Shown here piece after piece: positions 5,098 through 21,977 of a DNA stretch of 64,000 nucleotides. A model generated the notes under the pieces. It saw only the letters and a program-made list of their open reading frames with translations, was not told the DNA's origin and ran no database searches. Made by a program: the position numbers and the translations under genes. The stretch lies in NCBI GenBank assembly GCA_019637295.1, contig JAHBVX010000007.1, forward strand, positions 62,001 to 126,000. The letters are read 5' to 3'. The first letter of the stretch is position 1; the number at the start of each line of letters is the position of its first letter. The DNA comes from Polyangiaceae bacterium (GTDB lineage Bacteria; Myxococcota_A; Polyangia; Polyangiales; Polyangiaceae).

Positions 5098-6106
5098 ACC
5101 GATCACGATGGCGACCGTGGCGGCGGTGACGGAAGCCGGAGTCGCCGCCGGTGAGGGGGTTGCAGCTACGTCTACTGCCGTGAGCGCAGCGGAGGTCGGC
5201 CGCCAACTTGTGGCGGTCGAGAGCGTGGGCCTGGGCACGGCCGGGGCGTCCACCGAAGCGTTCGTCGGCTCGCTTGAGCTTGATGCAGCCGGGCTCGGAG
5301 ACGTGGTGCTGAGCCGCGCCGAAACGTCGGGGGCAGCGCTGTCCGAGGCGCTGCGCAAGGCAGGTACGGAGCTGCCGCAGATCGCCAAGTCCTCGGTGGA
5401 CGCCGGGGGAGGTACGACAGCTTTCGACGCTGCTCGTTGGTCCGAGTGGAGCCCTCAAGCCGGCGAGCGCGTAACCCCGCCGAGCATCGCAGAGAGGTTC
5501 CGTCCGCTTCGCGATCCGTCGAACCTCGAGTCGTACGCGCGTAACCTCGAGCAGCGGGACGCCGGCTTCGCGAAGGAGCTGGCCCGCCGCCAAGAGCAAC
5601 TCCAGGCGGCTAGGTCGCCGGCCGAGCTCGATGCAGCGCTCCAGCAGTTGCGCAAGACCACCGCCGGGAAGCTGGGCGAGTCGATCGCGACCGACGGACT
5701 GAAGCCCTACTTCAACGGGTTGGAGTTGCAGCGGCGCGTTGAAACCGCGAACGGCATGACGTTCATCGACGGTCGCTTCACCGAGGCACGTTGCTCGATC
5801 ATCTTCGCGCGGGGCCACAGTGTCGCGGAGGGAGGCACGCTCTCAGTCGAGGTCAAGACCGGCCAACCGGTGTACCTCGAGCGCGAGGTGAGCCACATCG
5901 CTGGTCGCCAGGTGCAGGGGCACCTGGCGGGTGGAGACAAGTCGCTCGTGCTGGTCTCGCGGGATGTGTACGCGATGACCGGCGAGCGCGCTGCGCGAGA
6001 CACTGTGGCCGAAGCCGGCTCGCGCGTCATGGCGCTGCTCCCCGAGAAGCGGACGATGGATGAGGCTCTCCTGCGACTCGTGCGAGACAGGGTGGAGAGG
6101 GCATGA
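5090..6106 (+). CDS. PD-(D/E)XK-type nuclease candidate
   Basis: The product has 338 residues. The C-terminal part has a restriction-endonuclease-like pattern: Asp227 in TFIDG, then Glu254-x-Lys256 in SVEVKTG, then a helix with SHIAGRQVQGH. This is the D-(X)n-ExK arrangement of PD-(D/E)XK enzymes. The first 90 residues are Ala/Val-rich without a clear signal peptide, and a charged, possibly coiled-coil stretch lies around 160-200. It overlaps the HerA gene by 8 bases and the next gene by 4, so all three are co-translated. The likely role is the DNA-cutting partner of the ATPase. The fold is inferred from motif order only, and a toxin-type REase domain is an alternative. Confidence 0.6.
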   Translation: MPEPITMATVAAVTEAGVAAGEGVAATSTAVSAAEVGRQLVAVESVGLGTAGASTEAFVGSLELDAAGLGDVVLSRAETSGAALSEALRKAGTELPQIAKSSVDAGGGTTAFDAARWSEWSPQAGERVTPPSIAERFRPLRDPSNLESYARNLEQRDAGFAKELARRQEQLQAARSPAELDAALQQLRKTTAGKLGESIATDGLKPYFNGLELQRRVETANGMTFIDGRFTEARCSIIFARGHSVAEGGTLSVEVKTGQPVYLEREVSHIAGRQVQGHLAGGDKSLVLVSRDVYAMTGERAARDTVAEAGSRVMALLPEKRTMDEALLRLVRDRVERA

Positions 6107-6517: not shown

Positions 6518-6911
6518 ATGAAGCTCAGCGTCTACACCGGCTCGCTTGTCGACCCAGCCATCGGCGCGCACGCCGTCGTCAACGCATCCAACCCGAGCGT
6601 CGCCCTCGGAAGCGGCGTCTCGGGTGCGCTTCGCGAGGCCTGCGGCGGTACCGCCTTCCAGCAGGAGCTTCGCGATCGGCTCGAGGAGGACTTCGACGCG
6701 GAGCTCGAGCCGGATGAGTGCCTCGTCACTTCAGCGGGCACCAGCACCGCCTTCCGCTGGGTGCTGCACGTACCGGCGGTCGACTACCGTAAGCGAGACC
6801 CGGAGACCGGAGGTCCCTCGGGCCCGCGCCGCGTTCGTGCGTGCGTGCGCGCGTTCCTCGACGCTGCCGCATCGCTCGCCACGGAGAACGACCTCACCGG
6901 GCAGTTTATCC
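6518..6911 (+). pseudogene. Macro-domain protein, truncated by IS66 insertion
   Basis: The first 131 codons read as a macro domain, the fold that binds ADP-ribose or NAD metabolites. VVNASNPSVAL at 20-30 followed by GSGVSGALREACGG matches the ligand-binding loop. The frame then runs straight into the left inverted repeat of the IS66 element at 6912 and ends at 7021 inside it. The expected second half (the GxGxGG loop and final helix) is missing, and I could not find it beyond the right IS end. The gene is therefore broken and has probably also lost flanking DNA. Its place after a HerA/nuclease operon suggests a former fifth component working on ADP-ribosyl signals (inference). Confidence 0.7.
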
Positions 6912-6936
6912 GTACGTCCTCGCCGTGCCCCGATCG
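6912..6936 (+). repeat. IS66 left inverted repeat
   Basis: This 25-base end matches the reverse complement of 9306-9330 with one mismatch near the inner side. Confidence 0.88.
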
Positions 6937-6971
6937 TGACAGTCCCGGCAGCGACCGCGACACTGCTGGTC

Positions 6972-7319
6972 ATGGACCGAGCAATGCAGGCGACGAGCGA
7001 CGGACTTCGGCGAGCGGTTGAAGCACTTGGCGAGCGCGGGCGAGGACGTCCTTATCCAAAGGGGTTGCGCGACGAGCTCATGCAGTACCTGCGCGCACGA
7101 CGCGCCGCCGGCGCAAAGCTCGAAACGATCGGCGCAGAGATCGGCGTTCCCTGGAAGACACTGTCGCGTTGGTCTGGCCCACAGCGGCGACGAAAGGCAT
7201 TCCGACGCGTCGAGGTCGTCGCGCCATCTGCTGTCGTGACGGTGCATGGTCCGCACGGTGTGCGGATTGAGGGTCTGGATCTTGACGGTCTAGCCGAGCT
7301 TCTACGGAGACTCGGGTGA
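6972..7319 (+). CDS. IS66 TnpA-like helix-turn-helix protein
   Basis: The product has 115 residues and is the first of the three IS66 proteins. A helix-turn-helix is visible in the middle (LETIGAEIGVPWKTLSRW), followed by a basic stretch (PQRRRKAFRRVEV). ATG 6972 is the first start that lies wholly inside the element and gives a normal length. Its stop overlaps the tnpB start as GTGA. It is an accessory transposition protein and probably binds DNA. Confidence 0.75.
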   Translation: MDRAMQATSDGLRRAVEALGERGRGRPYPKGLRDELMQYLRARRAAGAKLETIGAEIGVPWKTLSRWSGPQRRRKAFRRVEVVAPSAVVTVHGPHGVRIEGLDLDGLAELLRRLG

Positions 7320-7705
7320 TCGTTTCAGCGCGACAGGTAGCGGTGTTCGCGTACGCCGAGCCCGTAGACATGCGCAAGAGCTTCGACACGCTCGCCGCGC
7401 TCGTGAAGCATGCGCTCGACAAGGATCTGTTGAGCGGGAGTTTGTTCCTGTTCGTCTCGAAAGATCGAAAGCGAGCGAAGGTGCTGTACTTCGACGGCAC
7501 CGGGCTATGTCTATTCGCAAAGCGGTTGGAGAAGGGGCGCTTCGCACCGGTCTGTGATCGCGTCCGGAGTAGCTCGGTTACGATGACGCTGAGCGAGCTC
7601 ACGCAATACATCGAGGGCAGCGAGCGGCTCGGACAGAGCCCGGCTCTGTTGACGTGGGCAGACTTGACACCTCGCTGGCCAGAAAAGAATCGACGCGCCG
7701 GTTGA
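7316..7705 (+). CDS. tnpB: IS66 accessory protein TnpB (Orf2)
   Basis: The product has 129 residues and matches the IS66 Orf2 family: VDMRKSFDTLAALV near the start, then SLFLFVSKDRKRAKVLYFDG and GLCLFAKRLEKGRF. It starts with GTG in a GTGA overlap with tnpA. The protein is needed for IS66 transposition, though its exact action is unknown. Length and motifs look intact. Confidence 0.92.
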   Translation: MIVSARQVAVFAYAEPVDMRKSFDTLAALVKHALDKDLLSGSLFLFVSKDRKRAKVLYFDGTGLCLFAKRLEKGRFAPVCDRVRSSSVTMTLSELTQYIEGSERLGQSPALLTWADLTPRWPEKNRRAG

Positions 7706-7743
7706 ATGGTTGAATCCATTCGCCGCCGACGCGTCCTACGGGC

Positions 7744-9255
7744 ATGCTGCGTCTTGGCGTGGAGAAGGACATCGAAGTCGTCCGCCAGGCCGCGCTGCTG
7801 CTCGAGGCGGAGAATCAGAAGCTGGTCCAGAAGATCCTGGTGCTGCAGCGCGAGCTGCTTCAGCTGAAGGGAGGCGACCCGACGCAGCTTGCGCTCAAGC
7901 TCGCCGAGCTCGAGCAACAGCTTGCTCAGCGCAATCAGACGCTGTTCGGCGACTCGTCGGAGCGCCGAGCTAAGACGAAGCGCTCGGGTGCAAAGCCGCC
8001 ACAACGCGGGCACGGTCCGAAGAAACAGAATCTGCGCGAGGTCGAGCAGGTCATCGACCTTGGCCCCGTTGCAGCCACGGTCTGCGAGCACTGTAAAAAG
8101 GCCGTCGAGGAGTGGCCGGGCCAGTTTGAGGCAAGCGATGAGATTGATGTCATCACGCGCGAGTTCGTGTGCAAGAAGATCAAGCGCAAGAAGGCGCGCT
8201 GCAAGTGCCACCGCACCATCGTGACGGCGCCAGCGCCTCCGAAGCTGTTTCCCAGCGCCCGCTACTCGATCGACTTCGCGATCCTCGTGGTGATCGCAAA
8301 GTACCTCGATCACCTTCCGCTGGAGCGGCAAGCGCGCATCATGAAGCGCGAAGGCTTGGACGTCGATTCACAGACGCTGTGGGACTACGTCTATGCAGTC
8401 GCGCGGATCCTTCGGCCCGCCCACGATCAGTTGCGCGACTACCTGTTGGACAAGGCAGTGGTCGGAGTCGACGAGACGTGGTGGCGCCTGATGGGCGCTG
8501 AGGGCAAACGCGCCGGCGGTGACGGCAAGCGCTGGCAAGTCTGGTCGCTGTGCGGCAATGACGCTGTCTACTACCAGCTCGAGGACACGCGCGGGCTCAG
8601 CGCAGCAGAGAAGCTTCTGAAGAACTATCGCGGCGTCGTGATGGCCGACGGCTACGGTGTCTACAGCGCGCTCGCCAAGAAAGGCGGGGGCTTCGAGCTG
8701 GCTCATTGTTGGAGCCACGTTCGACGCAAGTTCCTCGAAGCAGAAGAAGCATTTCCAGAAGAAGCTGCGTTTGCCACCGAAAGAATCGACGCGCTCTTCC
8801 ACATCGATGGGCTGTGTCCCACGGGTCCACCCGGTGATGCGATGCGCGCAAAGCTGCGCGCCGAAAGATCGCGACCGGTTGTCGACGAGATCAATCGCTG
8901 GGTGTTCACCGTCACGGCGCTCCCGCGCAGCAGTCTGCGCAAAGCCATCGACTACATGCTCGGCTTGTGGAAGGGGCTCACACGCTTCTTAGATGACGCA
9001 CGCATACCGCTGAGCAACAACCACACAGAGCGTTCGCTACGCGGGCCGGTCGTCGGAAGAAAGAACCACTACGGCTCACGCTCACGGCGCGGCACGGAGG
9101 CTGCGGCAATTCTCTACTCATTCGTCGAGAGCGCGAAGCTGGCTGATGTCGACCCGCACGCCTACCTGCGCGTCGCCATCCTTGCCGCGCTCGCCGGAGA
9201 GCGGATCCCCCTCCCGCACGAACTCGTCACGACGACGGCCATGCCGTCTCCGTGA
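7744..9255 (+). CDS. tnpC: IS66 transposase TnpC
   Basis: The product is a 503-residue DDE transposase. An N-terminal coiled region with Gln/Glu-rich helices is followed by a zinc-finger-like pair (VCEHCKK and ARCKCHR). The catalytic core has VVGVDETWW, VVMADGYGVY and the family signature LSNNHTERSLRG with GRKNHYGSRSRRG. A typical C-terminal LRVAILAALAG segment closes it. Length is normal and no frame break is seen, so the element could be active. It starts 38 bases after tnpB. Confidence 0.95.
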   Translation: MLRLGVEKDIEVVRQAALLLEAENQKLVQKILVLQRELLQLKGGDPTQLALKLAELEQQLAQRNQTLFGDSSERRAKTKRSGAKPPQRGHGPKKQNLREVEQVIDLGPVAATVCEHCKKAVEEWPGQFEASDEIDVITREFVCKKIKRKKARCKCHRTIVTAPAPPKLFPSARYSIDFAILVVIAKYLDHLPLERQARIMKREGLDVDSQTLWDYVYAVARILRPAHDQLRDYLLDKAVVGVDETWWRLMGAEGKRAGGDGKRWQVWSLCGNDAVYYQLEDTRGLSAAEKLLKNYRGVVMADGYGVYSALAKKGGGFELAHCWSHVRRKFLEAEEAFPEEAAFATERIDALFHIDGLCPTGPPGDAMRAKLRAERSRPVVDEINRWVFTVTALPRSSLRKAIDYMLGLWKGLTRFLDDARIPLSNNHTERSLRGPVVGRKNHYGSRSRRGTEAAAILYSFVESAKLADVDPHAYLRVAILAALAGERIPLPHELVTTTAMPSP

Positions 9256-9305
9256 CCCGGCCCCCTTGGCGGCTCACGCTGCCGCCGTAATTCGTGCTGG
9301 ACCGG

Positions 9306-9330
9306 CGACCGGGGCACGGCGAGGACGTAC
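9306..9330 (-). repeat. IS66 right inverted repeat
   Basis: This is the reverse complement of 6912-6936 with one mismatch. It marks the right end of the element. Confidence 0.88.
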
Positions 9331-9724
9331 CGATGAGCGCCGCGTGGGACAGCCCTCCCGCTCTCTCTCCTGTCCCGTGGGGAGAGAGAAGCCGAGAGGC
9401 GTTTAACTGCGTACCCGGCGATCAACAGTCGACCCCGTTGGTCAACAGCTTCGCCGGGCGCGACGAGGCCGAGCCTGTTCATCATCGGGGCGACGGCTCG
9501 CGAGGAGCGACGAACGGTTGCCCGCTTGGCACGGGGCGAACCTCTCGTGCGAGGCCCGTGGTCGCGGGCGTCGCCGGGCCTGTTGATCGCTGGGGCGCTG
9601 TCCCAGCCGCGCGGCGGCCCGACACCGTTGCCGGGCGGAACGCCCTGGACCACGTCGGCGGCAACGGCGACAACTGGAGCGTCATGGTCCCGTTCATTCC
9701 CTTCGCCGCGCACCCGAGGTTGAG
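9331..9724. other. Gene-less spacer right of IS66
   Basis: I see no convincing gene in these 394 bases. They do not restore the missing part of the macro-domain gene in any frame. A hairpin with 8-base arms (CTCTCTCC, 10-base loop, GGAGAGAG) lies at 9363-9388 without a following T-run. Two loosely similar stretches (around 9470 and 9578, each GCCGxGCCTGTT then ATC and GGGGCG) hint at an old short duplication. The stretch is probably decayed sequence. Confidence 0.5.
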
Positions 9725-10648
9725 GTGATCGTCGGCGTCGACTTCGGTGCGCCGCAGCGGGCGCGCGACCAGCAACGGAAGATCATCGCCGTCGCCGCGC
9801 ACTCGACGGGCTGGCACTCCTACCGCATCGACGCGACCGGGATGAACACACGGCTCCTCGCGAACGAGCCTCCGGGCTGGACCGCGAAGGAACTCGTCGA
9901 CGAGCTCGTGGCCCGACCGGCGCGCGTCGTCGGGTGCGACTTCCCATTCTGCGTCCCGCACGCGCTCCTACGCGACCCGAAGTTCGCCGCCGACGTCGGC
10001 CACACGGACGGCGCGTTCCTCGGCTGGCGCTCGTTCAACTGGTGGATCGCGCAGCGCCTCCCGCTCACCGACCCGCTCGACTTCACGTCCTTCGCCCCGT
10101 GGCGAGCCCGCGCCGAGCGCGCGCGGCTCTGGACGAAGCGCGCGACGGACATCGCCGCCGGCGGGCAGCCGCCGCTCAAGGACAAGTTCCAGGCAACGTT
10201 CCAGATGACGCTCCTCGGGAACGTGTTGCTCTCGAAGCTGTGGGAGTCACACAAGTACCGCGTGCTGCCGTTCCCTGGCGGACGCGGCGCTGGCGAAATC
10301 ATCGAGGTCTACCCAGGCGCGACGCTCCGCGCGATGGGGCTCGCGAGCTACAAGTCGAGGCCCGACGAAGCGGTGCGTCTCGGCATCGCTGCGTGTGCCG
10401 CCGCCGGCATCAAGCTCGACGTCGATCTACGGCTCGTCGCCCTCGCGTGCCGCTACAGCTCGGGTACCACGAAGCCGCCCGACTACGACGTCGCCGACGC
10501 CTTCGTCGCGCTCTGCACGGCCATCCTCCACGCGGAGAACGGCTGTCGCCCGGTGCTCGCGCCCGACCCGACGTGGCAAGAGCGGCTCGTGAAGGAGTGG
10601 GAGGGCGCGATCTGGGTCCCGACCATCACGACGAGCGCACCGGCGTAG
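9725..10648 (+). CDS. DUF429 family protein (predicted RNase H-like nuclease fold)
   Basis: The product has 307 residues. MIVGVDFGAP at the N-terminus and VVGCDFPFCVP at about 60-70 give the paired acidic strands of the DUF429 / RNase H-like fold. EVYPGATLRAMG and YDVADAFVALCTA in the second half are typical of the family. The start is GTG 9725, with GAGGTTGAG just upstream. It ends with TAG. The function is unknown; DUF429 genes occur in defence and mobile regions. It stands alone between the IS66 flank and the helicase gene, 237 bases before the latter. Confidence 0.75.
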   Translation: MIVGVDFGAPQRARDQQRKIIAVAAHSTGWHSYRIDATGMNTRLLANEPPGWTAKELVDELVARPARVVGCDFPFCVPHALLRDPKFAADVGHTDGAFLGWRSFNWWIAQRLPLTDPLDFTSFAPWRARAERARLWTKRATDIAAGGQPPLKDKFQATFQMTLLGNVLLSKLWESHKYRVLPFPGGRGAGEIIEVYPGATLRAMGLASYKSRPDEAVRLGIAACAAAGIKLDVDLRLVALACRYSSGTTKPPDYDVADAFVALCTAILHAENGCRPVLAPDPTWQERLVKEWEGAIWVPTITTSAPA

Positions 10649-10885
10649 GCGGTCGTAACACCGGCGCGGTGCTGGACGCGCGTGGCACGTGACGAGCGGG
10701 GTTTCGGCGCGACTCCCGTCCGGGTAGAATTGCCCGTCTCCGGGTCGTATCGCCCGGCGGAAGGATCGCCCCTGTACGCGCAAAACCCCAAGTCGACGAC
10801 GAAGCCACCTCTGAAGGTGAGTGGCACGAGGCTCGCTCTATCGGGCGCGCGGCGACATCCCGTCGCGCACACGGAGAGCTGACGC
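10649..10885. other. Intergenic region before the chimeric helicase
   Basis: No gene can be supported here. The stretch holds several GCCCG/CGGGT blocks around 10725-10775 that can pair. It is the only place where a promoter for the helicase - 44-aa - NO VEIN-like operon could lie, but I see no clear -35/-10 pair. GAGAGCTG precedes ATG 10886. Confidence 0.4.
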
Positions 10886-13800
10886 ATGGCCCTACTGCAC
10901 TACGAAAATCTCGACGTCCGACGGCCCGACATCCTGCTGAAGAGCGCCTTCCACGGGCTCGGCACCTTCTTCAGGTTCCTCGACCAGACCAAGAAGCACA
11001 TGGAGAGCGACGCCGCCGTGCAGCGGCTCGCGGTCAAGCCCGGTGTCGCGCCGGAGGAGGACGAGGTCCGCACGACGCGCGGCGTGTGGGTCCAGCTCGA
11101 AGAACCGTCGGATCGTCCCAACGAGCCTGAGTCGACGTTCCGCGCCTTCATGGACGAGAACGTCCGCGAGGTGTTCGAGGTGCTGCCGCTCGACGGTAAA
11201 GAGACGGCCGACCGTCGGCGGGCGACGCAACGGAAGTTCGCGCCCGAGAGGAAGATCGCTGTGCTCGACCGTGACCCGGAGACGTCGCAGCTCCTGCTCG
11301 AGCGCAAGCCCGACGGGGAGCAGCTCCTCCTCCGGCCCAACACGCTCACGCTGCAGCGCCAGATCAAAGCGCTTCAGTTCCTTCAGAACGAGCCGTCGCC
11401 CGCGCACCTCCCGCTGCTTCGGCTGATGGAGGCGACCGAGCACGCGCGGTGGCCGGCGTTTACGCCTGTCCTAATCGGCGGCGATGACTGGCTGGTGTTG
11501 AAGGACTCCGAACGCCCAGGGACCGTCGAGCAGCGGACCTTCGTGAGCCTCGCTCTCGGGACGCCGGACTTCGTCTTCCTGGAGGGGCCGCCTGGCTCCG
11601 GGAAGACCACGGCAATCTGCGAGCTCATCCTTCAACTCGCGCACCAGGGGAAGCGCGCGCTGCTCTGCGCCTCGACCCATGTCGCTGTCGACAACGTGCT
11701 CGAGCGGCTCATGGATGACCGCAACCCGAACCGCGACCTCGTCATCCCAATCCGCATCGGCGAGCGGCGCAACGTCTCGGACAAGGCGCGCCCGTGGCAG
11801 ATGGAGAACTTCGTCAAGTCCGAGCGCGAGCGGCTCCTTCGCAAGCTCGAAGGACAGCGAGCGCTGAGCGACTCCCAGCGGGCTCTGCTCGAAGCGCTGC
11901 GCCACGGCACGACGGCCATCGAGCGCATGGTGCTCGACGCGGCGAACCTCGTCTGCGGCACGACGATCGGCATCCTGCAGCACCCCGACATCAAGGCGGG
12001 TGGCGCGGCCGCAACCTTCGACGTGCTCATCGTCGACGAGGCGTCCAAGACCACGTTCCAGGAGTTCCTCGTCCCCGCGCTGTACGCGAAGCGCTGGGTG
12101 ATTGTCGGCGACCCGAAGCAGCTCTCGCCCTACGTCGACGACGAGGCGATGGCCGTGAACATCGAGTCCTGCCTCCCGAGCGCGGAGGTACGGGACGCGT
12201 GCATCGACGTCTTCAACGCTGGTACCGCCGATCACCGGCGCCGACGCGTGGCGGCCGTCGTCACGGACACGCCGAAGGCGCGGCAGGCGTACCTTGCCCA
12301 GGCTGCAGCGCGCGATGTCGCGGCGGCCGATGCCGCCGTTGATGATGCCAGCGTCGCGGTCGCTTCGGTCGTCGTCGGCGACCTTGAGACCATGCGGCGC
12401 CGCGAGCGCGACCTCCCGCTCGACGTAGCGACCGTGCGTGCGCCAAGCGACGAACTCGACCACCTCCGACGGCGCGCCGATGCGTGGCTGCACATGGAGA
12501 AGCGAGGCCGCGAGGAACAGCCCGAGTGGGCCGACGAGATCGCCTGGCGTCTAGCCCGTCTGTACGAGCAGCGCTTCTCGAAAGAGGAAGCCATCGTCGT
12601 CCGCAACCGCCCCTGGCGCTCCACCGGCGAGCGGCTACGCGAGCAGGTCAACGACCTTCTGCCCGCCGCCGACACCGGCGTCGACACCGACAAGGTGTGG
12701 AACGAGATCGATCGCGTTCGCCGCGTGGCGCTGCCGTCCGTCCTCGAGTCGCTCCGGTACGGCTTCGAGCGAGACCCGAACGCCCGCAAGGGCACGGCGC
12801 TCTCCGATGGCTTGCCCGAGACCGCGCTCAGGATGCGCCACGTTCTGTTGAGCACCCAGCACCGCATGCACCCCGACATCGCGCGCTTCTCCCACGAACG
12901 GATTTACGACGGGCAGGCGCTCATCACGCCGCCGCGCATGACGACCGAGCGCGCGTGGGGGTTCCCGCGACACGCACACCGCGCGGTCTGGGCCGACGTG
13001 CGAGGCGGATTCAACGGGCGCTTCAATTCGAACAAGCGCGAAGCAGAGGCCGTCGTCGAAGAACTGAACACCGCCATCGTCTGCACCTCGACGATGGAGC
13101 TCGGCATCGACGTTGGCGATCTCGACCAGGTCATCCAGGTCGACGCGCCCACCTCGGTGGCGTCGTTCCTCCAGCGCCTCGGGCGCACGGGGCGCCGCGC
13201 AAACACCCGCGCCAACTGCACTTTCTTCTGCCTCAGCTCCGAGTCGCTGCTCCAGTCGGTGGCGCTGCTGCGGCTCGCCGAAGCGGGCTGGGTCGAGGAC
13301 GTCACGCCCGCCGCTCACGCGATGCACGTGCTCGCGCACCAGGTGATGGCGCTCATTCTTCAGGAGGGCGGCATCTCGCGGCACAAGCTGATGCCGTGGA
13401 TGGAGGCCGCCTACCCGTTCTCGTCAATCCGCCCCGAGCGCGTGCAGGAGCTGGTCGACACGATGGTGGCGCGCGAGATCCTCTACGAGGCCGATGGACT
13501 GCTCTCGCTCGGTACGCGCGGCGAGAAGCTCTACGGCAAGAAGAACTTCTTCGAGCTCTACGCTGTGTTCACCGCGCCGCCGGTGATGAAGGTGCAGCAC
13601 GGCAAGGAGGACGTCGGCTACGTGCAGGCGCTCTTCGTGACCATGCACGACGCCAGCAAGGGCCCGCTGTGCTTCCGTCTCTCGGGCCGCGCGTGGGAGG
13701 TCGGGCAGATCGACTTCGGCAAGGGCGTGCTCCACGTCAGGCCGGCCGACTACGGGCGGGTGCCGAGCTGGCTCGGACTCCCCGGCGTGCTCTCGAACCC

Positions 13801-14932
13801 GCTCTGCATGGCGATGCTCGACGTGCTCCTTCACGAGCGCCAGGAGGGCGGGTGGCTCAGCAAGGCCGCCGCCGCCGAGCTCGCGGCCATGCGTGACAGC
13901 TACGACGGCCTCCTCGAAGAAGGCACCGCGCCCCTCGAGGAGCATCCCGACGGCGTCCAGTGGCACACGTTCGCGGGCGGTGCGGTGAACCGGTTGCTGG
14001 CCGCAGGCCTCGGACAGAAGTCCGGCAAGAAGTGGGTGGCCGGAAACCTCTCGCTGAAGTGCAAGGACATCGCGTTCACGGCAGCGAGCGAAGCCGTGCG
14101 CAGCCTCGCCGACTTGAACTGGGAGAGCGTCGCCGGAGGCGCGGCTCGCGAGATGGCACGCGGCATGCTCAGCAAGTTCCAGCCGTGCCTCCCAGAGGAG
14201 GCCGAGGACCGGCTCCTCTCCGAGCGGCTCCTCGACCAGCCCGGCACCCTTCGCTTCCTCGCCACCGTGAAGGTGAACGGCACGCGCATCGCGGCGCGCC
14301 CCAGCGGCATGCGCCTCGCGGACATCGAGGCCACCGGCCCGCTGCCCTTGGAGTTCACGGTGCGCGCCGCGCCGGGCCCTACGGCCTCGCCCAAGAACGA
14401 CGTCCAGTGGGTGGACACGCCGGCGGCCCTCCGCGCGGTGAGCGAAGAGCTGCGGAGCGCCGACGTCGTCGGCCTCGACGTCGAGACCGCGCTCGACTTC
14501 GGCACGCTCTGCCTCCTGCAGATCGCCACCCGCACGCGCACCTTCCTCATCGACCCGCTCGCCGTCGGCGATCTCAAGCCCATCATCGACGTGCTCGGCG
14601 GATCGGTGCCCGTGAAGGTCATCCACAACGCCCGCTTCGAGCGTCGGGTCCTCGCGGCGATCGGCGTCGCCCTCGACGGCGTCTACGACACGCTCGAAGC
14701 GTCGCGCCGCGCGCGCGGCAAGGACGCCCTCGGCGGCCACAGCCTCGCGATGGTCTGCGAGCGCGAGCTCGGCGTGGCCCTCGACAAGGGCGAACAGACG
14801 TCGAACTGGAGCCGCCGCCCCCTCGACGCTGACCAGTTGAAGTACGCCGCCCTCGACGCCAAGATCCTCCTCGCCCTGCACGAGCGGTTCAACGAGCTGG
14901 GCATTGTGTCCGATGAGGGCGCTTCGCGGTGA
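10886..14932 (+). CDS. Chimeric SF1/SF2 helicase with C-terminal DEDDy 3'-5' exonuclease
   Basis: The product has 1348 residues and looks like two proteins joined in frame. Residues 1-727 are an SF1 (Upf1/Dna2-like) helicase: Walker A GPPGSGKT 234-241, VDEAS at 383-387, GDPKQLSPY, and STQHRMHP 656-663. Its motifs V and VI are absent. From about 728 the sequence becomes the back half of an Lhr-like SF2 helicase: STMELGIDVGDLDQVIQ from 735 and QRLGRTGRR 763-771. That half lacks its own Walker A and B. Residues about 1180-1340 are an RNase D-like exonuclease with DVE (1198-1200), IHNARFE and Y1320-x3-D1324. ATP hydrolysis and strand movement may be uncoupled, while the exonuclease looks complete. 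Assembly error is possible. Confidence 0.8.
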   Translation: MALLHYENLDVRRPDILLKSAFHGLGTFFRFLDQTKKHMESDAAVQRLAVKPGVAPEEDEVRTTRGVWVQLEEPSDRPNEPESTFRAFMDENVREVFEVLPLDGKETADRRRATQRKFAPERKIAVLDRDPETSQLLLERKPDGEQLLLRPNTLTLQRQIKALQFLQNEPSPAHLPLLRLMEATEHARWPAFTPVLIGGDDWLVLKDSERPGTVEQRTFVSLALGTPDFVFLEGPPGSGKTTAICELILQLAHQGKRALLCASTHVAVDNVLERLMDDRNPNRDLVIPIRIGERRNVSDKARPWQMENFVKSERERLLRKLEGQRALSDSQRALLEALRHGTTAIERMVLDAANLVCGTTIGILQHPDIKAGGAAATFDVLIVDEASKTTFQEFLVPALYAKRWVIVGDPKQLSPYVDDEAMAVNIESCLPSAEVRDACIDVFNAGTADHRRRRVAAVVTDTPKARQAYLAQAAARDVAAADAAVDDASVAVASVVVGDLETMRRRERDLPLDVATVRAPSDELDHLRRRADAWLHMEKRGREEQPEWADEIAWRLARLYEQRFSKEEAIVVRNRPWRSTGERLREQVNDLLPAADTGVDTDKVWNEIDRVRRVALPSVLESLRYGFERDPNARKGTALSDGLPETALRMRHVLLSTQHRMHPDIARFSHERIYDGQALITPPRMTTERAWGFPRHAHRAVWADVRGGFNGRFNSNKREAEAVVEELNTAIVCTSTMELGIDVGDLDQVIQVDAPTSVASFLQRLGRTGRRANTRANCTFFCLSSESLLQSVALLRLAEAGWVEDVTPAAHAMHVLAHQVMALILQEGGISRHKLMPWMEAAYPFSSIRPERVQELVDTMVAREILYEADGLLSLGTRGEKLYGKKNFFELYAVFTAPPVMKVQHGKEDVGYVQALFVTMHDASKGPLCFRLSGRAWEVGQIDFGKGVLHVRPADYGRVPSWLGLPGVLSNPLCMAMLDVLLHERQEGGWLSKAAAAELAAMRDSYDGLLEEGTAPLEEHPDGVQWHTFAGGAVNRLLAAGLGQKSGKKWVAGNLSLKCKDIAFTAASEAVRSLADLNWESVAGGAAREMARGMLSKFQPCLPEEAEDRLLSERLLDQPGTLRFLATVKVNGTRIAARPSGMRLADIEATGPLPLEFTVRAAPGPTASPKNDVQWVDTPAALRAVSEELRSADVVGLDVETALDFGTLCLLQIATRTRTFLIDPLAVGDLKPIIDVLGGSVPVKVIHNARFERRVLAAIGVALDGVYDTLEASRRARGKDALGGHSLAMVCERELGVALDKGEQTSNWSRRPLDADQLKYAALDAKILLALHERFNELGIVSDEGASR

Positions 14933-15063
14933 AGTTGCCTCTCAACCAGAAGGCGGCGGGTTTCGACCGCAGCATCAAGGGTGGCTTCGCAACGAACCAC
15001 GACGACGCACTCGGAGCGGTGGTCGAGATCCTCCACCTCGGCTGCTCGGTGCGGAAGCCATGA
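14929..15063 (+). CDS. 44-residue ORF bridging helicase and NO VEIN-like genes
   Basis: A GTG at 14929 overlaps the helicase stop (GTGA), and the TGA of this ORF overlaps ATG 15060 of the next gene (ATGA). The 44-residue product begins MKLPLNQKAAGF and ends SVRKP, and it is not recognised. It closes the space between two large genes exactly, which favours real translation, either as a small subunit or as a coupling leader. It could also be the tail of a gene lost in the recombination that made the chimeric helicase. Confidence 0.5.
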   Translation: MKLPLNQKAAGFDRSIKGGFATNHDDALGAVVEILHLGCSVRKP

Positions 15064-18000
15064 GGGACGACGTCGTGGTGCCGTCGGAGTTGCGCGCCCT
15101 CTGGCGTCAGCGCGCCGAGGTGCTGGCGACGAACGTCGCGAGCGGCGGTCGCGAGCACCGCGAGATCGCCCACGCCGCCGCGCTGATTCGGCAGGACTAC
15201 CACGACCGCTTCCTCGTCGAGCTGCTCCAGAACGCGAACGATCAGGCGCTGGTCGGCGGCGTCCACGACTCCACGGTCGTCATCGTTCGCACGACGCAGT
15301 TCCTCGCCGTGTCCAACGGCGGGCAGGCCGTCACCGCACGCAACCTCGAACGCCTCAGCTCCTTGGCGGACAGCGACAAGACCGGCGTGCTCGTCGGCAA
15401 CAAGGGCGTCGGTTTCAAGGCCGTCTACCAGGTCACCGATGCGCCCGAGGTCTACAGCGCTTCGTCGGAGCCAGCTTCGGGCAGCATCTTCACGAACTTC
15501 GGCGTCGGCATCGCGCTCGAGCAGCACCCGTTCGAGCAACGCGTTCTGCGCGCTGCCGTCGAGGACGACGTGCGCACGTTCTTCCGCGAGAACGCTGGGC
15601 TCGCGCAGACGCTCACGAGTCGTGGCATCGAAGACCCGCTCGCGGCTGTTCGCCCCGAGTTCGAGCGCGTCGCGGGGTTCAAGTTTCCGCTCGCCCGCGA
15701 CGCTCGTGACCTTGATGCCCGACTCGACGATCTGCGCATCCCGGAGGGCGAGCGCGACGCGATTCGCACGCTCGTCGTGGTCCCTCTACGCGACCACAAG
15801 GCGAGCGACGACGTCGAGGGCGCCATCGACCGGCTCGTGGGAGACGAGGACGAGAGCGAAGCGGGGCAAGCCGAGCTGGCGCTGCTCTTCCTCATGGGCG
15901 TGTCGAGGATCGTCGTCATCGACCGGGTGCGCGATGCGCAGTGGACGTTTGCTCGCGCGACTGACGATGGAACGCCAACCATTGCCACGATCACGGCGAC
16001 CACGCCGAACGCTGCCGAGCGCGTCGCGCGATTCTGGACTCTGCGGCGGGATGCCCTCTCATGCGACGCGTCCGTCAGCACCGAGCGCCGACGAGTCGTT
16101 CAGGACGCGCTGCGTGAGTTCTGCCTCGAAGCGTGGAAGGACGATGATCCGCTGCCGGTGACGATCGCGCTCCCGATGCCCACCGCCGATCAGATTGGCC
16201 CACTCGGACCTCCCGGCCGCTTCTGCCTCGGACTTCCAACCCAGCAGCCCACGGGCCTGCCGGTGCATGTCGATGCCCGGTTCTTCGCGACCATCTCACG
16301 CACGGGCCTCGACTTCGCGCTGCCCTACAACGCCATGCTCCTCGACGTGACCACGGAGCTGGTCGGCGACTTGCTCGGCACCCTCCGCGACTCGCCTCGT
16401 ATCGAAGAACGTCGAGCGGTCACGCTGGCGCTGCATCGAACGGCGGGTGCCCTCGCGGACCGCGTCTTTGCTGCCGAGGGCGTTGCCGACGGCGAGGTTG
16501 TGCTCGCGTGGGCCGGCACGAGCTTTCTGCCGAGAACGGAATGTCGCCTGCCGTCAGACGCCGAACGAGCTCTGCTCGGCTTCGTGCGCGACGCGCTCGC
16601 TCAGCTCGGCGAGGTTGGGGCCCTTCCCGAGGAGGGCCTGCTGGTGCATGCGGCCTCGGTGCTCGACTCCATCGGATTGCCGCCGCTGGCGGCGTCGCCG
16701 CATCCGTGGCTGGAACGCGCCGACGAGACGAGCGTGGTCGAGCGGGCCGCACGCCACCACCGTGCTGACGGTCCGAGCTACTGGGAGGGTTTCGCGAACA
16801 CGCTACTCGACTGCTTCGAGGTCGTAGAACTGCAGGAACAGGCGTGGTTGCCCGTTGGGACGAAAGAGCTGGCCGCACCATCGCAGCGTGTCTTCCTCCC
16901 GACGTCGGGTGACATGCAGGGCGATGACGAGGAGGTGGCAAACGTGCCGCCACGCGTTGCGGCGATGATTCGGCTTCTCGACGGTTCCGCGCTGCACATC
17001 CGCGAAGACGGCCGTGTCCTCACCAAGCTCGCATCCCGCCTCGACCAAGAGAAGCTGGTGCGGAGACCGCGCAAGACCGAGCTGCTCGAGGAGGCGCTGT
17101 TCCCAGCGTTGTCCAGCGCTGCCGAACAGGACGATGACATCGCCTTCGAGCTGTTCGTTCAGGCCGTCATCTGGATCGCCTCGATGCGTGACCTCTCGCG
17201 CAAGAAGCTGGATTGCAGCGAGGCGTACGTGCCCATCGTCGACGAGCAGGGCGACCTGGTCTGGTCCCTGGCCGGCGTGAGCTACCTGGGGGAAGGTTGG
17301 GGCCTGCCGCAAGAGCACGAGCGATTGCTCGCTGCTGCCTACCCAGGAGGACGGCTCGTTCCGTTCGGGCAGCTCCGCGAGCGTTTCGGCCTCGCGGAGG
17401 ACGCGGTCACGAGTTGGCGAACCGCTGTCGAGGTGATGGGCGTCCACCGGCTCCCACGCGTTGTTTCGTACTCGGAGCGTCAAGCCCCGCTCGTGAGCTA
17501 CAACGGCAACCTTCAGGTGGTCGGCACGCCGACACTCACCGGCGGTGAGAACTCGGCGCTCGACAAGATCTACCAAAAGTACGTCCAACATCTCGCGGCG
17601 ACCAACTCGACGAGGTGGACGCACCGACTCCCTCACGATGTGAGCGACGTCTTCTGGATCGACGACCTCGAACTCGCGACACGACGTGAGGCAATCGTCG
17701 ACCTGGTGCTGGGTCACCACGAGCAGTACGTGCAGCGCCTCAGCGTGTCCCTGGGACGAGCTGGGCAGGGGCCGTGGTCCACGGTCAGCGTCATGTGGGT
17801 CTTCGCGCTATCGGCTCTCGGTTGGCCAGTACTCCCTGGCGAGCAGGGCGTCGGAATGAAGCCAGTCCGAGTTAGCGCCAAGCAGCTCTGGCGCCTGCCG
17901 GACGGTGCGCGCCGCGCCCTCTATGCACAGATGCTCAACGTCGTGCCTCACGGGCTGGCCGGAGCTTCGCGGCTCCTCGGGGCCATTGGCGTGCCTTCGG

Positions 18001-20513
18001 TAGAGGAGGCGCCGCTCAGTCGGCTCATCGGTGCGCTCGGAGAGCTTTCTCGGCGGCTCGACGATGAGCGTCTGAACACGCGTCGCGAGGCCCACTCCCT
18101 CGCGATCGAGCTGTACACGCAGGTCAACTCACGACTCGAGAGGGAGCAGCTTTCAGGAGTGCCGTCTGGGCTCAAGCTCCCGCTGCTTCGCGACCGCAGG
18201 ATCGAGAGCGTCGACCCGGGTGAGGCAGGCGTGGTCGTACTCTTCGACGACGAGCCCGCGCGCGCGCGACACATCGCTGGTCTGGAGCGGGCGTACCGAG
18301 TTCCTGTCGCCCGCGATGCCGCCGTCGACAGGTTGCACGCCCTCTTCTCCCAGTGGTGGGGCGCAGACCGCGTGCTTCGGTCGTCGACGGCCGCTGTCCG
18401 CGTGGCGTTCTCTCCTTCTGCGCCCAATGAGAGCTTCCTGCGGTGGCTTCAGCGCGAGCATCCCCACGTCGAGGTGGCCGCTCACTTGGCGACGCTCCTC
18501 ACGTTCGGCGGTGAGCGCCTGGTCCGCACGGAGCCCGTCAGCCGACAGTGGAAGGCGTACGAGAAGCTCTCGCTGGTGTTCGGGACGTTCGACGACCCGA
18601 CGGTGACGGCGTTCTACGACCGCGCCAATGACCGGCTGTCGGTGTCGGTGTCGCTCGACAAGTTCGATGTTCTCGCAGCGACCTGGGAACTTGCCGGTGC
18701 GCGGTCTCGAGATCTCTGGGCCGGATATGCCAACGCCCTTCGAACCGGGACCACCCACGCCTTCCTGCTCGAGCGCGAGATCCGAGAGGATGTCGAGGTC
18801 ATCGACGTCGCCGACGCTGCTGGCCTCAATCGGGCGATGAGCGTGAAGGCGCTGGCTCCCGCGCTGCTCGCGGCGCGGTGCCACTTCGTTCCCGGCACGA
18901 CGCTCGACGATGCCGCCGACTGGCTTTCAACCATCGGCGATCGTCCAGACGACGTGGCCCTGGCTCTCGGTAGGGACGACCTCGCAGCGATCCTGACGAA
19001 CGCACTTGGTCAACGCTCGCCCGAAGGGGAGATTCAAGTCGTCCGACACCTCGGCGTTCCGTGGCCCCTGTGGCAAGAGGCCCTGGTCCGGCGCGACGGG
19101 GAGCGGTACGTCTTTCGAGAATCCGCGCAGCGCTTCCGACGTGTTCGCGAACACCTCGTCGCCATGGCGCGGGAGATCGGTGCGCGTGAAGCCAACGTCG
19201 ACTTGGACGCACTCTCGATGGCGCTCGCCTCGATCGCTGCCACTCCGGCCCCGGACACCGTGCAATTCGTGCCTCTCGATGAGGCGAAGGCGGATGAGAC
19301 CGCGCTGGAGGTCGTGCGAGACGCGGTCGTGACGGTCGATCTGGTGAGTCGCGGATTCGCGGAACTGCCCGCGCTTCCTTGGCGACTGGACGATGAACTG
19401 CCCGTTCCCGAGAAGAGCGCTACCCAACGCGGCGTTCGCCTGTTCCGAGACGCTTCAGCTTCCGCACGCGAGTCCGACGCGACCACCTCGGTGAACGCTG
19501 TCGTCAACGTGGCCGTGCGCGTGGCAGCGACTGTCGACGAGACGGTGGACGCGTCTGCGATCTTGGGTGACACCAAGCTCGCGGCGCGCATGCGCGGCGA
19601 GTGGGCCCACGTGTACTCGGCGCTCTTGCTGCTGCGTCCGATGATCGAGAAGGCGGCCCCGGAGACGACCAAGAAGCTGTCGGCGGCTCATGCGTTTCGC
19701 GACCCGACTACATACGCGCGGCTCGTCCAGAGCATCCCTGACCTCCCGCGCGCGGAGCGCGACGTTCCGCAGCCGAAGCAGTCGGTGCTGGGGCAGGAGT
19801 TCACTGCGAGCGAACTGCGCGCTGACCTTGCCGCTGGAGCGACGGGAGCTCTCGGGGCGAAGCTCGCCGCTGCAGCGGCACGCGGCCTTGATCCGGCACT
19901 CCTGTCCGCCTCGCGAAGTGCTCTGCCGCCTCCCGGCACGCGCGCAAAGGGCGGCGGAGGTCGCGGCGGTGGCGGCGGCACCTCCACCGGACAGCAACGC
20001 CGGGAGCCTGAACTCATCGGCGACCTCGGCGAGGCGTTGGTTCATGAGTGGCTTGGCTCCGTGCTCGGTGCGGAGTACGGGCCCGACTGCTGGGTGTCGA
20101 AGTCACGCGAGCGCTATGGCCTGCCTCCTGGCAACGATGGGCTAGGGTTCGACTTCAAGGTTCCCGATCCGAAGGGGGCGCTCTTCGGCACGTCAGCCGC
20201 GTCGGTGCAGATCGAGGTCAAAGCGACCAGCACGGACGGGAGCGGCCCGTTTCCCATGTCGCGCGCGGAGTGGGAGGAGGCGCGCCGATGCCACGTCGAG
20301 GGCACCGAGGGCACCGAGCTCTTCGTGATCGTCCGGGTGTTCGACGTCGATACCGATCCGAGGATCGGCGATGTCATCGTCGATCCGTTCGCAGCCCACG
20401 GGCGTGGTGAGATTCGGCTCGCCGATCGCGACCTCTGGGTGACCGTTGCGCCGCCGCAGATCGCTGTGGAAGAGGAAGAAGCAGACGATGAGCGCGACGA
20501 CGACGAGCTGTGA
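15060..20513 (+). CDS. NO VEIN/sacsin-like GHKL ATPase with C-terminal DUF3883 nuclease-like domain
   Basis: The product has 1817 residues. The N-terminus is a GHKL (Hsp90/histidine-kinase type) ATP-binding domain: N-box ELLQNANDQ 54-62, SNGG 85-88 and glycine loop GNKGVGFK 113-120. The C-terminus (about 1654-1800) matches the NO VEIN C-terminal domain (DUF3883), with GDLGEALVHEWL, Asp1698 in GFDFKV and Glu1719-x-Lys1721 in IEVKATS, a PD-(D/E)XK-like core. A Gly-rich linker at about 1630-1640 joins it to a long, poorly conserved middle. The tail is very acidic. ATG 15060 is chosen for its ATGA overlap; TTG 14904 would lie inside the helicase gene. The likely role is ATP-gated recognition and cutting of foreign DNA (inference). 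Confidence 0.8.
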   Translation: MRDDVVVPSELRALWRQRAEVLATNVASGGREHREIAHAAALIRQDYHDRFLVELLQNANDQALVGGVHDSTVVIVRTTQFLAVSNGGQAVTARNLERLSSLADSDKTGVLVGNKGVGFKAVYQVTDAPEVYSASSEPASGSIFTNFGVGIALEQHPFEQRVLRAAVEDDVRTFFRENAGLAQTLTSRGIEDPLAAVRPEFERVAGFKFPLARDARDLDARLDDLRIPEGERDAIRTLVVVPLRDHKASDDVEGAIDRLVGDEDESEAGQAELALLFLMGVSRIVVIDRVRDAQWTFARATDDGTPTIATITATTPNAAERVARFWTLRRDALSCDASVSTERRRVVQDALREFCLEAWKDDDPLPVTIALPMPTADQIGPLGPPGRFCLGLPTQQPTGLPVHVDARFFATISRTGLDFALPYNAMLLDVTTELVGDLLGTLRDSPRIEERRAVTLALHRTAGALADRVFAAEGVADGEVVLAWAGTSFLPRTECRLPSDAERALLGFVRDALAQLGEVGALPEEGLLVHAASVLDSIGLPPLAASPHPWLERADETSVVERAARHHRADGPSYWEGFANTLLDCFEVVELQEQAWLPVGTKELAAPSQRVFLPTSGDMQGDDEEVANVPPRVAAMIRLLDGSALHIREDGRVLTKLASRLDQEKLVRRPRKTELLEEALFPALSSAAEQDDDIAFELFVQAVIWIASMRDLSRKKLDCSEAYVPIVDEQGDLVWSLAGVSYLGEGWGLPQEHERLLAAAYPGGRLVPFGQLRERFGLAEDAVTSWRTAVEVMGVHRLPRVVSYSERQAPLVSYNGNLQVVGTPTLTGGENSALDKIYQKYVQHLAATNSTRWTHRLPHDVSDVFWIDDLELATRREAIVDLVLGHHEQYVQRLSVSLGRAGQGPWSTVSVMWVFALSALGWPVLPGEQGVGMKPVRVSAKQLWRLPDGARRALYAQMLNVVPHGLAGASRLLGAIGVPSVEEAPLSRLIGALGELSRRLDDERLNTRREAHSLAIELYTQVNSRLEREQLSGVPSGLKLPLLRDRRIESVDPGEAGVVVLFDDEPARARHIAGLERAYRVPVARDAAVDRLHALFSQWWGADRVLRSSTAAVRVAFSPSAPNESFLRWLQREHPHVEVAAHLATLLTFGGERLVRTEPVSRQWKAYEKLSLVFGTFDDPTVTAFYDRANDRLSVSVSLDKFDVLAATWELAGARSRDLWAGYANALRTGTTHAFLLEREIREDVEVIDVADAAGLNRAMSVKALAPALLAARCHFVPGTTLDDAADWLSTIGDRPDDVALALGRDDLAAILTNALGQRSPEGEIQVVRHLGVPWPLWQEALVRRDGERYVFRESAQRFRRVREHLVAMAREIGAREANVDLDALSMALASIAATPAPDTVQFVPLDEAKADETALEVVRDAVVTVDLVSRGFAELPALPWRLDDELPVPEKSATQRGVRLFRDASASARESDATTSVNAVVNVAVRVAATVDETVDASAILGDTKLAARMRGEWAHVYSALLLLRPMIEKAAPETTKKLSAAHAFRDPTTYARLVQSIPDLPRAERDVPQPKQSVLGQEFTASELRADLAAGATGALGAKLAAAAARGLDPALLSASRSALPPPGTRAKGGGGRGGGGGTSTGQQRREPELIGDLGEALVHEWLGSVLGAEYGPDCWVSKSRERYGLPPGNDGLGFDFKVPDPKGALFGTSAASVQIEVKATSTDGSGPFPMSRAEWEEARRCHVEGTEGTELFVIVRVFDVDTDPRIGDVIVDPFAAHGRGEIRLADRDLWVTVAPPQIAVEEEEADDERDDDEL

Positions 20514-20577
20514 GAAGCAAGGACCTTCAACGCGGGCGCCTCACGGTCTCAGCATCTGCGATCGCGTCTCGCGCTTC

Positions 20578-21735: not shown

Positions 21736-21977
21736 CCATGAACGCCGCCCACATCACCATCGCGCCCCAGCTCCCCGGACCGCGCGAACGGGCGCCCTTT
21801 GTCCCGAGCCTGCGGTGGACGCCCGGGGCGTCGCGCTCGGCGCGCCACGCGCCAACGTGGGCGCCGTGGTGGCGCTCGTCCACGCTCGCGCTGCTCGTCC
21901 GTGACGCGCTCGCGGAGCCCTTCGACGCGGCCGGCGGGGTTTCTTGGGATCTGGCTGAGGGCGCCCAGGTCGGTCCA

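What the first reader, a model, noticed from the sequence alone, without database searches (positions are those of the whole stretch)
10886..14932. In-frame fusion of an SF1 helicase front to an SF2 helicase back
Residues 1-727 hold SF1 motifs I-IV, and from about 728 the protein has only SF2 motifs V-VI of an Lhr-like helicase, then an exonuclease. Each helicase lacks what the other has. The join near 13065-13070 lies at an EELN/TAIV boundary. It is either a deletion between two neighbouring genes or a true new architecture.
Basis: seen in the sequence. Interest (0 to 1): 0.75.

Follow-up and report, generated by a model that had tools for sequence, protein, structure and literature searches.

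The report
Two defence helicases accidentally fused
One open reading frame joins the front of one phage-defence helicase to the back of another, unrelated one; no relative found has this join, and it looks like the scar of a DNA deletion rather than a new working machine.

Summary
ORF 10886-14932 (+, 1348 aa) joins residues 1-727 of a UPF1/DNA2-like SF1 helicase to a BREX-type BrxHI SF2 helicase-exonuclease from its residue 297 on. The join is 13066|13067, with no inserted base. Both source genes are complete elsewhere: SF1 (14 of 15 read: 847-909 aa) in a four-gene operon, BrxHI (9 read: 702-925 aa) after BrxC-PglZ-BrxD. No relative spans the join: 0 of 50 other places in 108 family genomes, 0 of 155 other loci. 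The genome lacks the missing half of each gene; searches for two partner genes found none (PglZ) or one weak hit (PLD). Both helicases lose the middle of RecA domain 2. AlphaFold2 folds that domain in an intact relative but not in the fusion, although the fusion's alignment held no BrxHI rows. Signs of relaxed constraint are weak and mixed. Best explanation: a private, in-frame deletion or rearrangement scar in a defence island, probably without helicase activity, although exonuclease residues, a sigma-54-like promoter and, 14 kb upstream, an RtcR-type activator remain. An assembly join cannot be excluded without reads. A functional new architecture is possible but unsupported. Interest is low.

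The parts
10822..10837 (+). sigma-54-type promoter-like site (TGGCACGAGGCTCGCT), 64 nt upstream of the start codon, shared with many intact SF1 relatives
   Evidence: 11 of 15 SF1 genes (some close relatives of each other) have a site of score 9 or more (of 12) at -52 to -77; background in 65-nt stretches of the window 0.016 (9 or more) and 0.0015 (10 or more). Consensus recalled, not from a call
10886..13066 (+). front part: residues 1-727 of an SF1 UPF1/DNA2-like (Mokosh MkoA-like) helicase; lacks about 150 C-terminal residues (second half of RecA2, motifs V-VI)
11585..11608 (+). Walker A (GPPGSGKT) of the SF1 RecA1
   Evidence: sequence; alignment positions
12035..12040 (+). Walker B (DE) of the SF1 RecA1
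   Evidence: sequence; alignment positions
12857..12868 (+). QHRM motif at the entry to RecA2 of the SF1 part
   Evidence: alignment positions 464-467
13066..13067 (+). the join: CTG (Leu727) | AAC (Asn728)
13067..14932 (+). back part: BrxHI from its residue 297 to the end (motifs V-VI, the region described in print as wHTH/beta-barrel/Lhr-type CTD, exonuclease); lacks RecA1 and the first half of RecA2
   Evidence: domain names from PMC12839542 section 24
14402..14893 (+). 3'-5' exonuclease domain (DNA_pol_A_exo1); aligned DxE, HNARFE and YxxxD positions as in most of the seven relatives aligned
15060..20513 (+). TmtA (Tiamat-like) gene with NOV_C domain, next gene downstream; full length against its model; not part of the fusion. 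Start placed by homology to G029 (the mechanical ORF begins at 14904)
6908..9334 (.). IS66 element upstream (transposase 7744-9255, 29-nt inverted repeats at 6908-6936 and 9306-9334)

Best explanation
The ORF is the product of an illegitimate deletion or rearrangement in a defence island. It joined codon 727 of the helicase gene of a Mokosh-like SF1/PLD/RtcR operon in frame to codon 297 of the brxHI gene of a BREX type 2-like system. The event removed the end of the first gene, the first third of the second, and in all likelihood everything between. Shown: two separate families, a base-exact join, no relative with the join among those searched, and absence of the missing halves from this genome. 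Inferred: a single deletion as the mechanism; transcription from the old sigma-54-type promoter; a protein with an intact SF1 RecA1 but a broken RecA2, hence no directional unwinding; and possible survival of the C-terminal exonuclease as the only working part. It is most likely a decaying remnant that is still open because the event is recent or because the exonuclease end is tolerated.
For: SF1 homology ends at 13066 and BrxHI homology begins at 13067. Of the 51 places listed in the family search, the 50 that are not the window's own stop by residue 738 or start at 709 or later (five best candidates per genome scored). Of 157 fetched loci (not all distinct places), 91 encode the SF1 side and 59 the BrxHI side; only L001 and L133, the window's own, encode both. 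No spanning hit in the listed rows for 317 class genomes (list cut) or 377 phylum genomes (E 1e-40 or better). In the own genome the SF1 probe finds only the fusion plus two weak short hits; the BrxHI probe finds its residues 291-914 there and elsewhere helicases of 37% identity or less and one 40% exonuclease match. PglZ gave no match (no positive control), PLD one 31% hit. AlphaFold2: intact relative mean pLDDT 87.7 with RecA2 blocks 82-96; fusion 76.5 with segments below 50 at protein residues 691-715 and 736-788. Lineage-specific N:S in the BrxHI half is higher in the window than in L037: 27:30 vs 24:64 (p 0.02), 29:46 vs 19:59 (p 0.08), 20:37 vs 17:53 (p 0.24).
Against: The 4-kb frame is fully open with coding-type GC3 throughout and conserved exonuclease residues, as a selected protein would have. 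An RtcR_PspF2-type CARF activator gene lies on the same contig about 14 kb upstream, so the old promoter may still be usable. N:S on the window branch is below a neutral ratio (expected value recalled). Against L155 as partner the N:S sign is reversed (33:52 vs 52:50), and the SF1 half shows no consistent difference. The fusion's AlphaFold2 alignment held SF1 rows only, so low confidence in its BrxHI segment is partly expected. A single deletion cannot be shown, because no relative with both genes in this order was found.
Confidence: 0.7

Rival explanations
1. Assembly artefact: the assembler joined two contigs or collapsed an island, and the organism carries the two genes separately.
For: No reads are held. 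The join is in one genome only and falls between genes that no fetched relative has in this order. The genome is a 25-contig assembly.
Against: A mis-join should leave the missing halves elsewhere in the 98.47% complete assembly, and they are not there. The join lies deep inside a 461,715-base contig. The 120 bases around it match nothing else over more than 39 bases, so no long repeat could mislead an assembler. The frame is kept across the join (prior about 1/3 by chance).
Confidence: 0.12
2. A true new architecture: a selected composite enzyme in which an SF1 ATPase front drives the BrxHI DNA-binding modules and exonuclease.
For: The frame is open. Walker A and B, the BrxHI motif V-VI region and the exonuclease motifs are intact. 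The sigma-54-type promoter site is retained and an RtcR_PspF2-type activator gene lies about 14 kb upstream. Both source proteins come from loci whose genes match defence-system models.
Against: No second example. RecA2 is a patchwork lacking central elements and is not predicted to fold, unlike the intact control. Partner genes tested are missing or give one weak hit. Weak, mixed sign of relaxed constraint.
Confidence: 0.13
3. A natural, widespread architecture in which BrxHI-like and SF1 modules are normally fused.
For: One plasmid locus has relatives of both families about 1.3 kb apart (L145).
Against: There they are separate genes in the opposite order, with the SF1 relative matched only over residues 1-273 beside an IS26. 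Apart from the window's own locus no fetched locus has both probes.
Confidence: 0.01

Closest known systems
BrxHI helicase of BREX type 2 (Pgl)
   Same: Residues 728-1337 match BrxHI to its end (PDLC02501); nearest relative 541 of 620 aligned residues identical (L037), in a BrxC-PglZ-BrxD-BrxHI cluster. Published description: SF2 core, wHTH, beta-barrel, Lhr-type CTD (PMC12839542, section 24 read).
   Different: The first 296 residues (RecA1 with Walker A/B and the first part of RecA2) are missing; no BREX PglZ found in this genome (no positive control).
Mokosh-like (MkoA) SF1 helicase in a helicase / unknown / PLD / RtcR-CARF operon
   Same: Residues 1-727 are 70-73% identical to operon members in Aquitalea, Rhodoferax and family genome G026; same start and similar upstream sigma-54-type site.
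   Different: The last ~150 residues, including SF1 motifs V-VI, and the operon's PLD gene are missing here; no operon partner lies in the window.
Shango SngC and other SF2 defence helicases
   Same: SngC model hits 718-1124.
   Different: Weaker than BrxHI (195 vs 430 bits) and not covering the exonuclease end.

Membership tests
BREX type 2 BrxHI helicase | Complete SF2 helicase core: DEAD-type RecA1 with Walker A/B, plus RecA2 | tested here: not met
   SF2 sequence starts at BrxHI residue 297; Helicase_C only from profile position 58
BREX type 2 BrxHI helicase | C-terminal modules and, in this clade, the 3'-5' exonuclease domain | tested here: met
   PDLC02501 to profile position 920 of 925; DNA_pol_A_exo1 1173-1336; alignment
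BREX type 2 BrxHI helicase | Encoded beside BrxD and PglZ | tested here: not met
   BrxC, PglZ and BrxD of L037 give no hit in the window or its 20 kb upstream. PglZ has no match in the whole genome (no positive control run). BrxC, BrxD, PglX and PglW were not searched genome-wide
Mokosh-like SF1 helicase | AAA_11 + AAA_12 core with both RecA domains complete | tested here: not met
   AAA_12 stops at profile position 101 of 195 here, against 194 of 195 in L044
Mokosh-like SF1 helicase | Companion PLD nuclease gene | tested here: not met
   PLD of L044 finds only one weak 31% hit in the genome and none in the window
Tiamat (neighbour gene 15060-20513) | TmtA-type protein over its full length | tested here: met
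   PDLC03966 E 3.6e-169, residues 59-1848, profile 2-1652 of 1655; 76% identical homologue in G029 over the 581 N-terminal residues used as query

The most novel reading that the evidence does not exclude
The fusion is a working composite enzyme made by one accidental deletion: an SF1 ATPase front, still under the old sigma-54-type promoter and within reach of the RtcR-type activator that remains upstream, coupled to the DNA-binding and exonuclease back of BrxHI. That would be a defence enzyme born by joining halves of RecA domains from two helicase superfamilies.
Probability: 0.1. Interest if true: 0.65.

Novelty: new variant of a known kind. Interest (0 to 1): 0.2.

Why it matters
If it is only a scar, it is a clean example of how deletions in defence islands create long open frames that look like new multidomain proteins, and a warning for domain-architecture mining: one genome with an in-frame join is not a new architecture. 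If the protein worked, it would show that RecA halves from SF1 and SF2 helicases can be exchanged in nature.

Tried and rejected
Considered and rejected: (1) a frequent natural fusion; no second case among the loci fetched or the listed hits. Two strong hits that reach well before the join, G305 (query 62-299) and G359 (87-299), were fetched: G305 (L148) is an ordinary full-length BrxHI and neither has an SF1 match. L046 (60-267) likewise has none. Further rows start up to about 35 residues before the join or end up to about 10 after it; they were not fetched one by one. (2) A second deletion downstream, between TmtA and a truncated transposase: the difference from G029 is at a transposase gene and can be explained by separate insertions, so I do not count it. 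(3) Repeat-mediated deletion: no repeat lies at the join, and, judged from relatives, at most one or two bases are shared. (4) An alignment holding both SF1 and BrxHI rows for structure prediction: MAFFT misplaced rows in each version tried, so the fusion was modelled with SF1 relatives only, to residue 788. (5) Viral contigs gave no relative; phage records gave three weak matches. (6) Loss of every possible activator: not so, an RtcR_PspF2-type gene lies upstream. (7) Papers: searches listed no paper whose title or shown abstract opening describes such a fusion; the listed papers were not read for this. Of other papers I saw section 24 and passages of PMC12839542 and passages of PMC12458937, PMC11090510 and PMC4012209.
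Full report
The observation. ORF 10886-14932 on the + strand is open for 1348 codons. Pfam finds AAA_11 (best stretch 215-315) and a cut-off AAA_12 (profile 15-101 of 195, residues 650-729), then Helicase_C only from profile position 58 (residues 724-771), then DNA_pol_A_exo1 (1173-1336). PADLOC matches an MkoA-type SF1 helicase to 66-728 and BrxHI to 718-1337, the latter starting at profile position 289 of 925. Compared with intact relatives, the SF1 helicase of L044 aligns to window 10886-13066 (its residues 1-726, 70% identity) and BrxHI of L037 to 13067-14920 (its residues 297-914, 88%), with no base between. The DNA reads GAACTG|AACACC. At this place the six SF1 relatives shown have GAGCT(T/C) (four), GAACTG (one) or GAGATC (one), followed by other codons; of eleven BrxHI relatives shown, eight have CAGAAC and the others CAAAAC, CGGAAC or GAGAAC, then AC(C/G). 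Judged from these, at most one or two bases are shared, and no repeat sits at the join.

What the two halves are. Of 15 SF1 relatives read, 14 are 847-909 aa and one 758 aa; nine BrxHI relatives are 702-925 aa. In L044, L117, L151 and L153 the SF1 gene is followed by genes of a conserved operon: an unknown protein, a PLD nuclease and, where the contig reaches, an RtcR/PspF-type CARF-AAA-HTH activator. The plasmids of Pontibrevibacter and Vibrio aerogenes show the same order: helicase, hypothetical protein, phospholipase D-like, sigma 54-interacting regulator. BrxHI relatives follow BrxC, PglZ and BrxD: in L037 by PADLOC, and by homology to L037 in L149 (PglZ and BrxC matched in part), L150 (one 987-aa gene inserted), L152, L154 and L155. 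The published analysis of BrxHI (PMC12839542, section 24 read) gives SF2 core, wHTH, beta-barrel and Lhr-type CTD; 'exonuclease' does not occur in the main text of that paper, while 'rnase d' occurs once in a passage I did not see. The exonuclease end is present in relatives of this clade, for example L037.

No relative found has the join. In 108 genomes of the same family (five best candidates each scored), 37 had a match at E 1e-20 or better. Of the 51 listed places, the 50 that are not the window's own stop by residue 738 or start at residue 709 or later. A scan of GTDB r220 gave 123 relatives of a join-spanning query; the best 80 were kept. Class-wide (133 of 317 genomes with a match at E 1e-15, list cut) and phylum-wide (43 of 377 at E 1e-40), no listed hit but the window's own covers both sides. 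Two strong hits that begin 41 and 66 residues before the join (G359, G305) have no SF1 match when checked; weaker rows that overlap the join by up to about 35 residues were not fetched. Of all 157 loci fetched (some cover the same place), 91 encode the SF1 side and 59 the BrxHI side; both only in L001 and L133, the window's own. Among plasmids, 0 of 887 matching records cover 80% of the protein at one place. One, Rhodobacter xanthinilyticus pEJ01 (L145), has relatives of both families about 1.3 kb apart, as separate genes in the opposite order, the SF1 relative matched only over residues 1-273 beside an IS26.

The genome holds no other half. Searching the assembly (7,651,130 bases, 25 contigs, 98.47% complete) with intact BrxHI returns the fusion from BrxHI residue 291, and otherwise only helicases of 37% identity or less plus one 40% exonuclease match. 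Intact SF1 returns the fusion over its residues 1-727 and two weak short hits. PglZ gave no match; the tool notes that without a positive control an empty answer shows nothing. The PLD gene gives a single 31% hit. The 120 bases over the join match nothing else beyond stretches of at most 39 bases, and the contig is 461,715 bases long. A mis-join should have left the other halves somewhere, so a real deletion is favoured; without reads it is not proved.

Can it work? The SF1 RecA1 keeps Walker A and B, and the BrxHI back keeps motif V-VI and exonuclease residues. RecA2 is a patchwork. The SF1 strand-helix WEVAVLTFYRGQ and SF1 motifs V-VI are gone, and so are the SF2 units KKSLVFVESR and VEVFIHHSS (compare sequences). 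AlphaFold2 on residues 195-788 with 19 SF1 relatives gave mean pLDDT 76.5. In the RecA1 part 18 of 22 ten-residue blocks are 82 or more and four are 64-77, but pLDDT is less than 50 over protein residues 691-715 and 736-788, and also 567-577 in the insertion. The intact relative L117 with the same relatives gave 87.7, with RecA2 blocks (its residues 481-650) of 82-96 and RecA2 strands formed; its insertion has a dip of 57 at the same place. The fusion's alignment held no BrxHI rows, so this is suggestive only.

Selection. Lineage-specific nonsynonymous:synonymous counts in the BrxHI half are 27:30 for the window against 24:64 for L037 (outgroup L149, Fisher p 0.02), 29:46 against 19:59 (L155, p 0.08) and 20:37 against 17:53 (L118, p 0.24). 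Against L149 as partner they are 27:30 against 73:124. With five outgroups pooled they are 19:26 against 17:53 (not tested). With L155 as partner the sign is reversed (33:52 against 52:50), and in the SF1 half there is no consistent difference (37:49 against 41:45; 119:105 against 21:32). The relaxed-constraint signal is therefore weak and mixed.

Expression. A TGGCACG-N4-TCGCT site lies 64 nt before the start codon. Of 15 SF1 genes, 11 have a comparable site (score 9 or more of 12) at -52 to -77; four do not (L119, L120, L056, L146). Some of the 15 are close relatives. The background in 65-nt stretches of the window is 0.016 for score 9 or more and 0.0015 for score 10 or more. The sigma-54 consensus is recalled. 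The operon's RtcR_PspF1-type activator is not in the window. Of 44 matches to it in the whole genome, one covers its CARF part as well (C23:57919-59166, minus strand, 34% identity); the other 43 start at its residue 144 or later. That gene matches the RtcR_PspF2 model (E 1.4e-162) and lies about 14 kb upstream of the fusion, so a related activator, probably of another system, is still at hand.

Setting. Directly downstream is a TmtA (Tiamat-like) gene, full length against its model (15060-20513). Upstream are a DUF429 gene, an IS66 element with 29-nt inverted repeats (6908-9334) and a HerA-like ATPase (820-5097). The family is probably Polyangiaceae: inferred because contigs of same-family genomes match, in length and locus, records titled Polyangium fumosum (60,266 bases, L124 and L060) and Polyangiaceae bacterium (7,399 bases, L119 and L057).

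Verdict. The fusion is real in the assembly and base-exact. It is private to this genome as far as searched, and most likely a deletion or rearrangement scar between two defence systems with a broken helicase core. Confidence is about 0.7; functional novelty about 0.1. The re-check added the upstream RtcR-type gene and moved the TmtA start to 15060; neither changes the odds.

Noticed in passing
10822-10837, and upstream of SF1 genes in L117, L151, L044, L045, L048, L049, L059, L062, L147, L153: A sigma-54-type promoter-like site at a similar distance precedes 11 of 15 helicase genes of the SF1/unknown/PLD/RtcR-CARF operon type, so this Mokosh-like system may be inducible through a CARF-sensing activator.
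   Followed up: partly
L156:15709-17379 (-), own contig C23, about 14 kb upstream of the fusion gene: RtcR_PspF2-type CARF-AAA-HTH activator near a 265-aa protein with a look of TerY (by eye) and a frame of 1179 aa with a weak SF1 helicase match at C23:52761-53027; possibly a further RtcR-linked defence system such as a CoCoNuT.
   Followed up: partly
L044:8693-9961 and the second genes of L117, L151, L153, L146, L147: The second gene of the SF1 operon has no Pfam (1e-4) or PADLOC (1e-10) match in L044, yet homologues stand beside the helicase and PLD genes in L117, L151 and L153.
   Followed up: no
window 20446-21874: Transposase remnant directly behind TmtA, 84% identical in DNA to a longer copy in G029, apparently split into two frames in the window.
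   Followed up: partly
L131/L132 (G029), reverse complement 19339-20913 upstream of its TmtA gene: In the only other family genome with a close TmtA among those searched, the gene upstream starts inside what looks like an HsdR-type restriction subunit (by eye, no database call), so TmtA again follows an apparently truncated defence gene.
   Followed up: no
L145 (Rhodobacter xanthinilyticus pEJ01) 8110-11980: BrxHI/SngC-like and SF1 helicase relatives sit about 1.3 kb apart as separate genes, the SF1 relative matching only residues 1-273 beside an IS26 transposase.
   Followed up: partly
window 47839-52583: Metallophosphoesterase followed by an AAA_27/SMC-like ATPase of 1167 aa, an SbcDC-like pair.
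   Followed up: no
window 820-6106: 1425-aa HerA-like ATPase (PADLOC HerA/mad8) followed by a 338-aa protein without Pfam or PADLOC match; a possible further defence pair.
   Followed up: no
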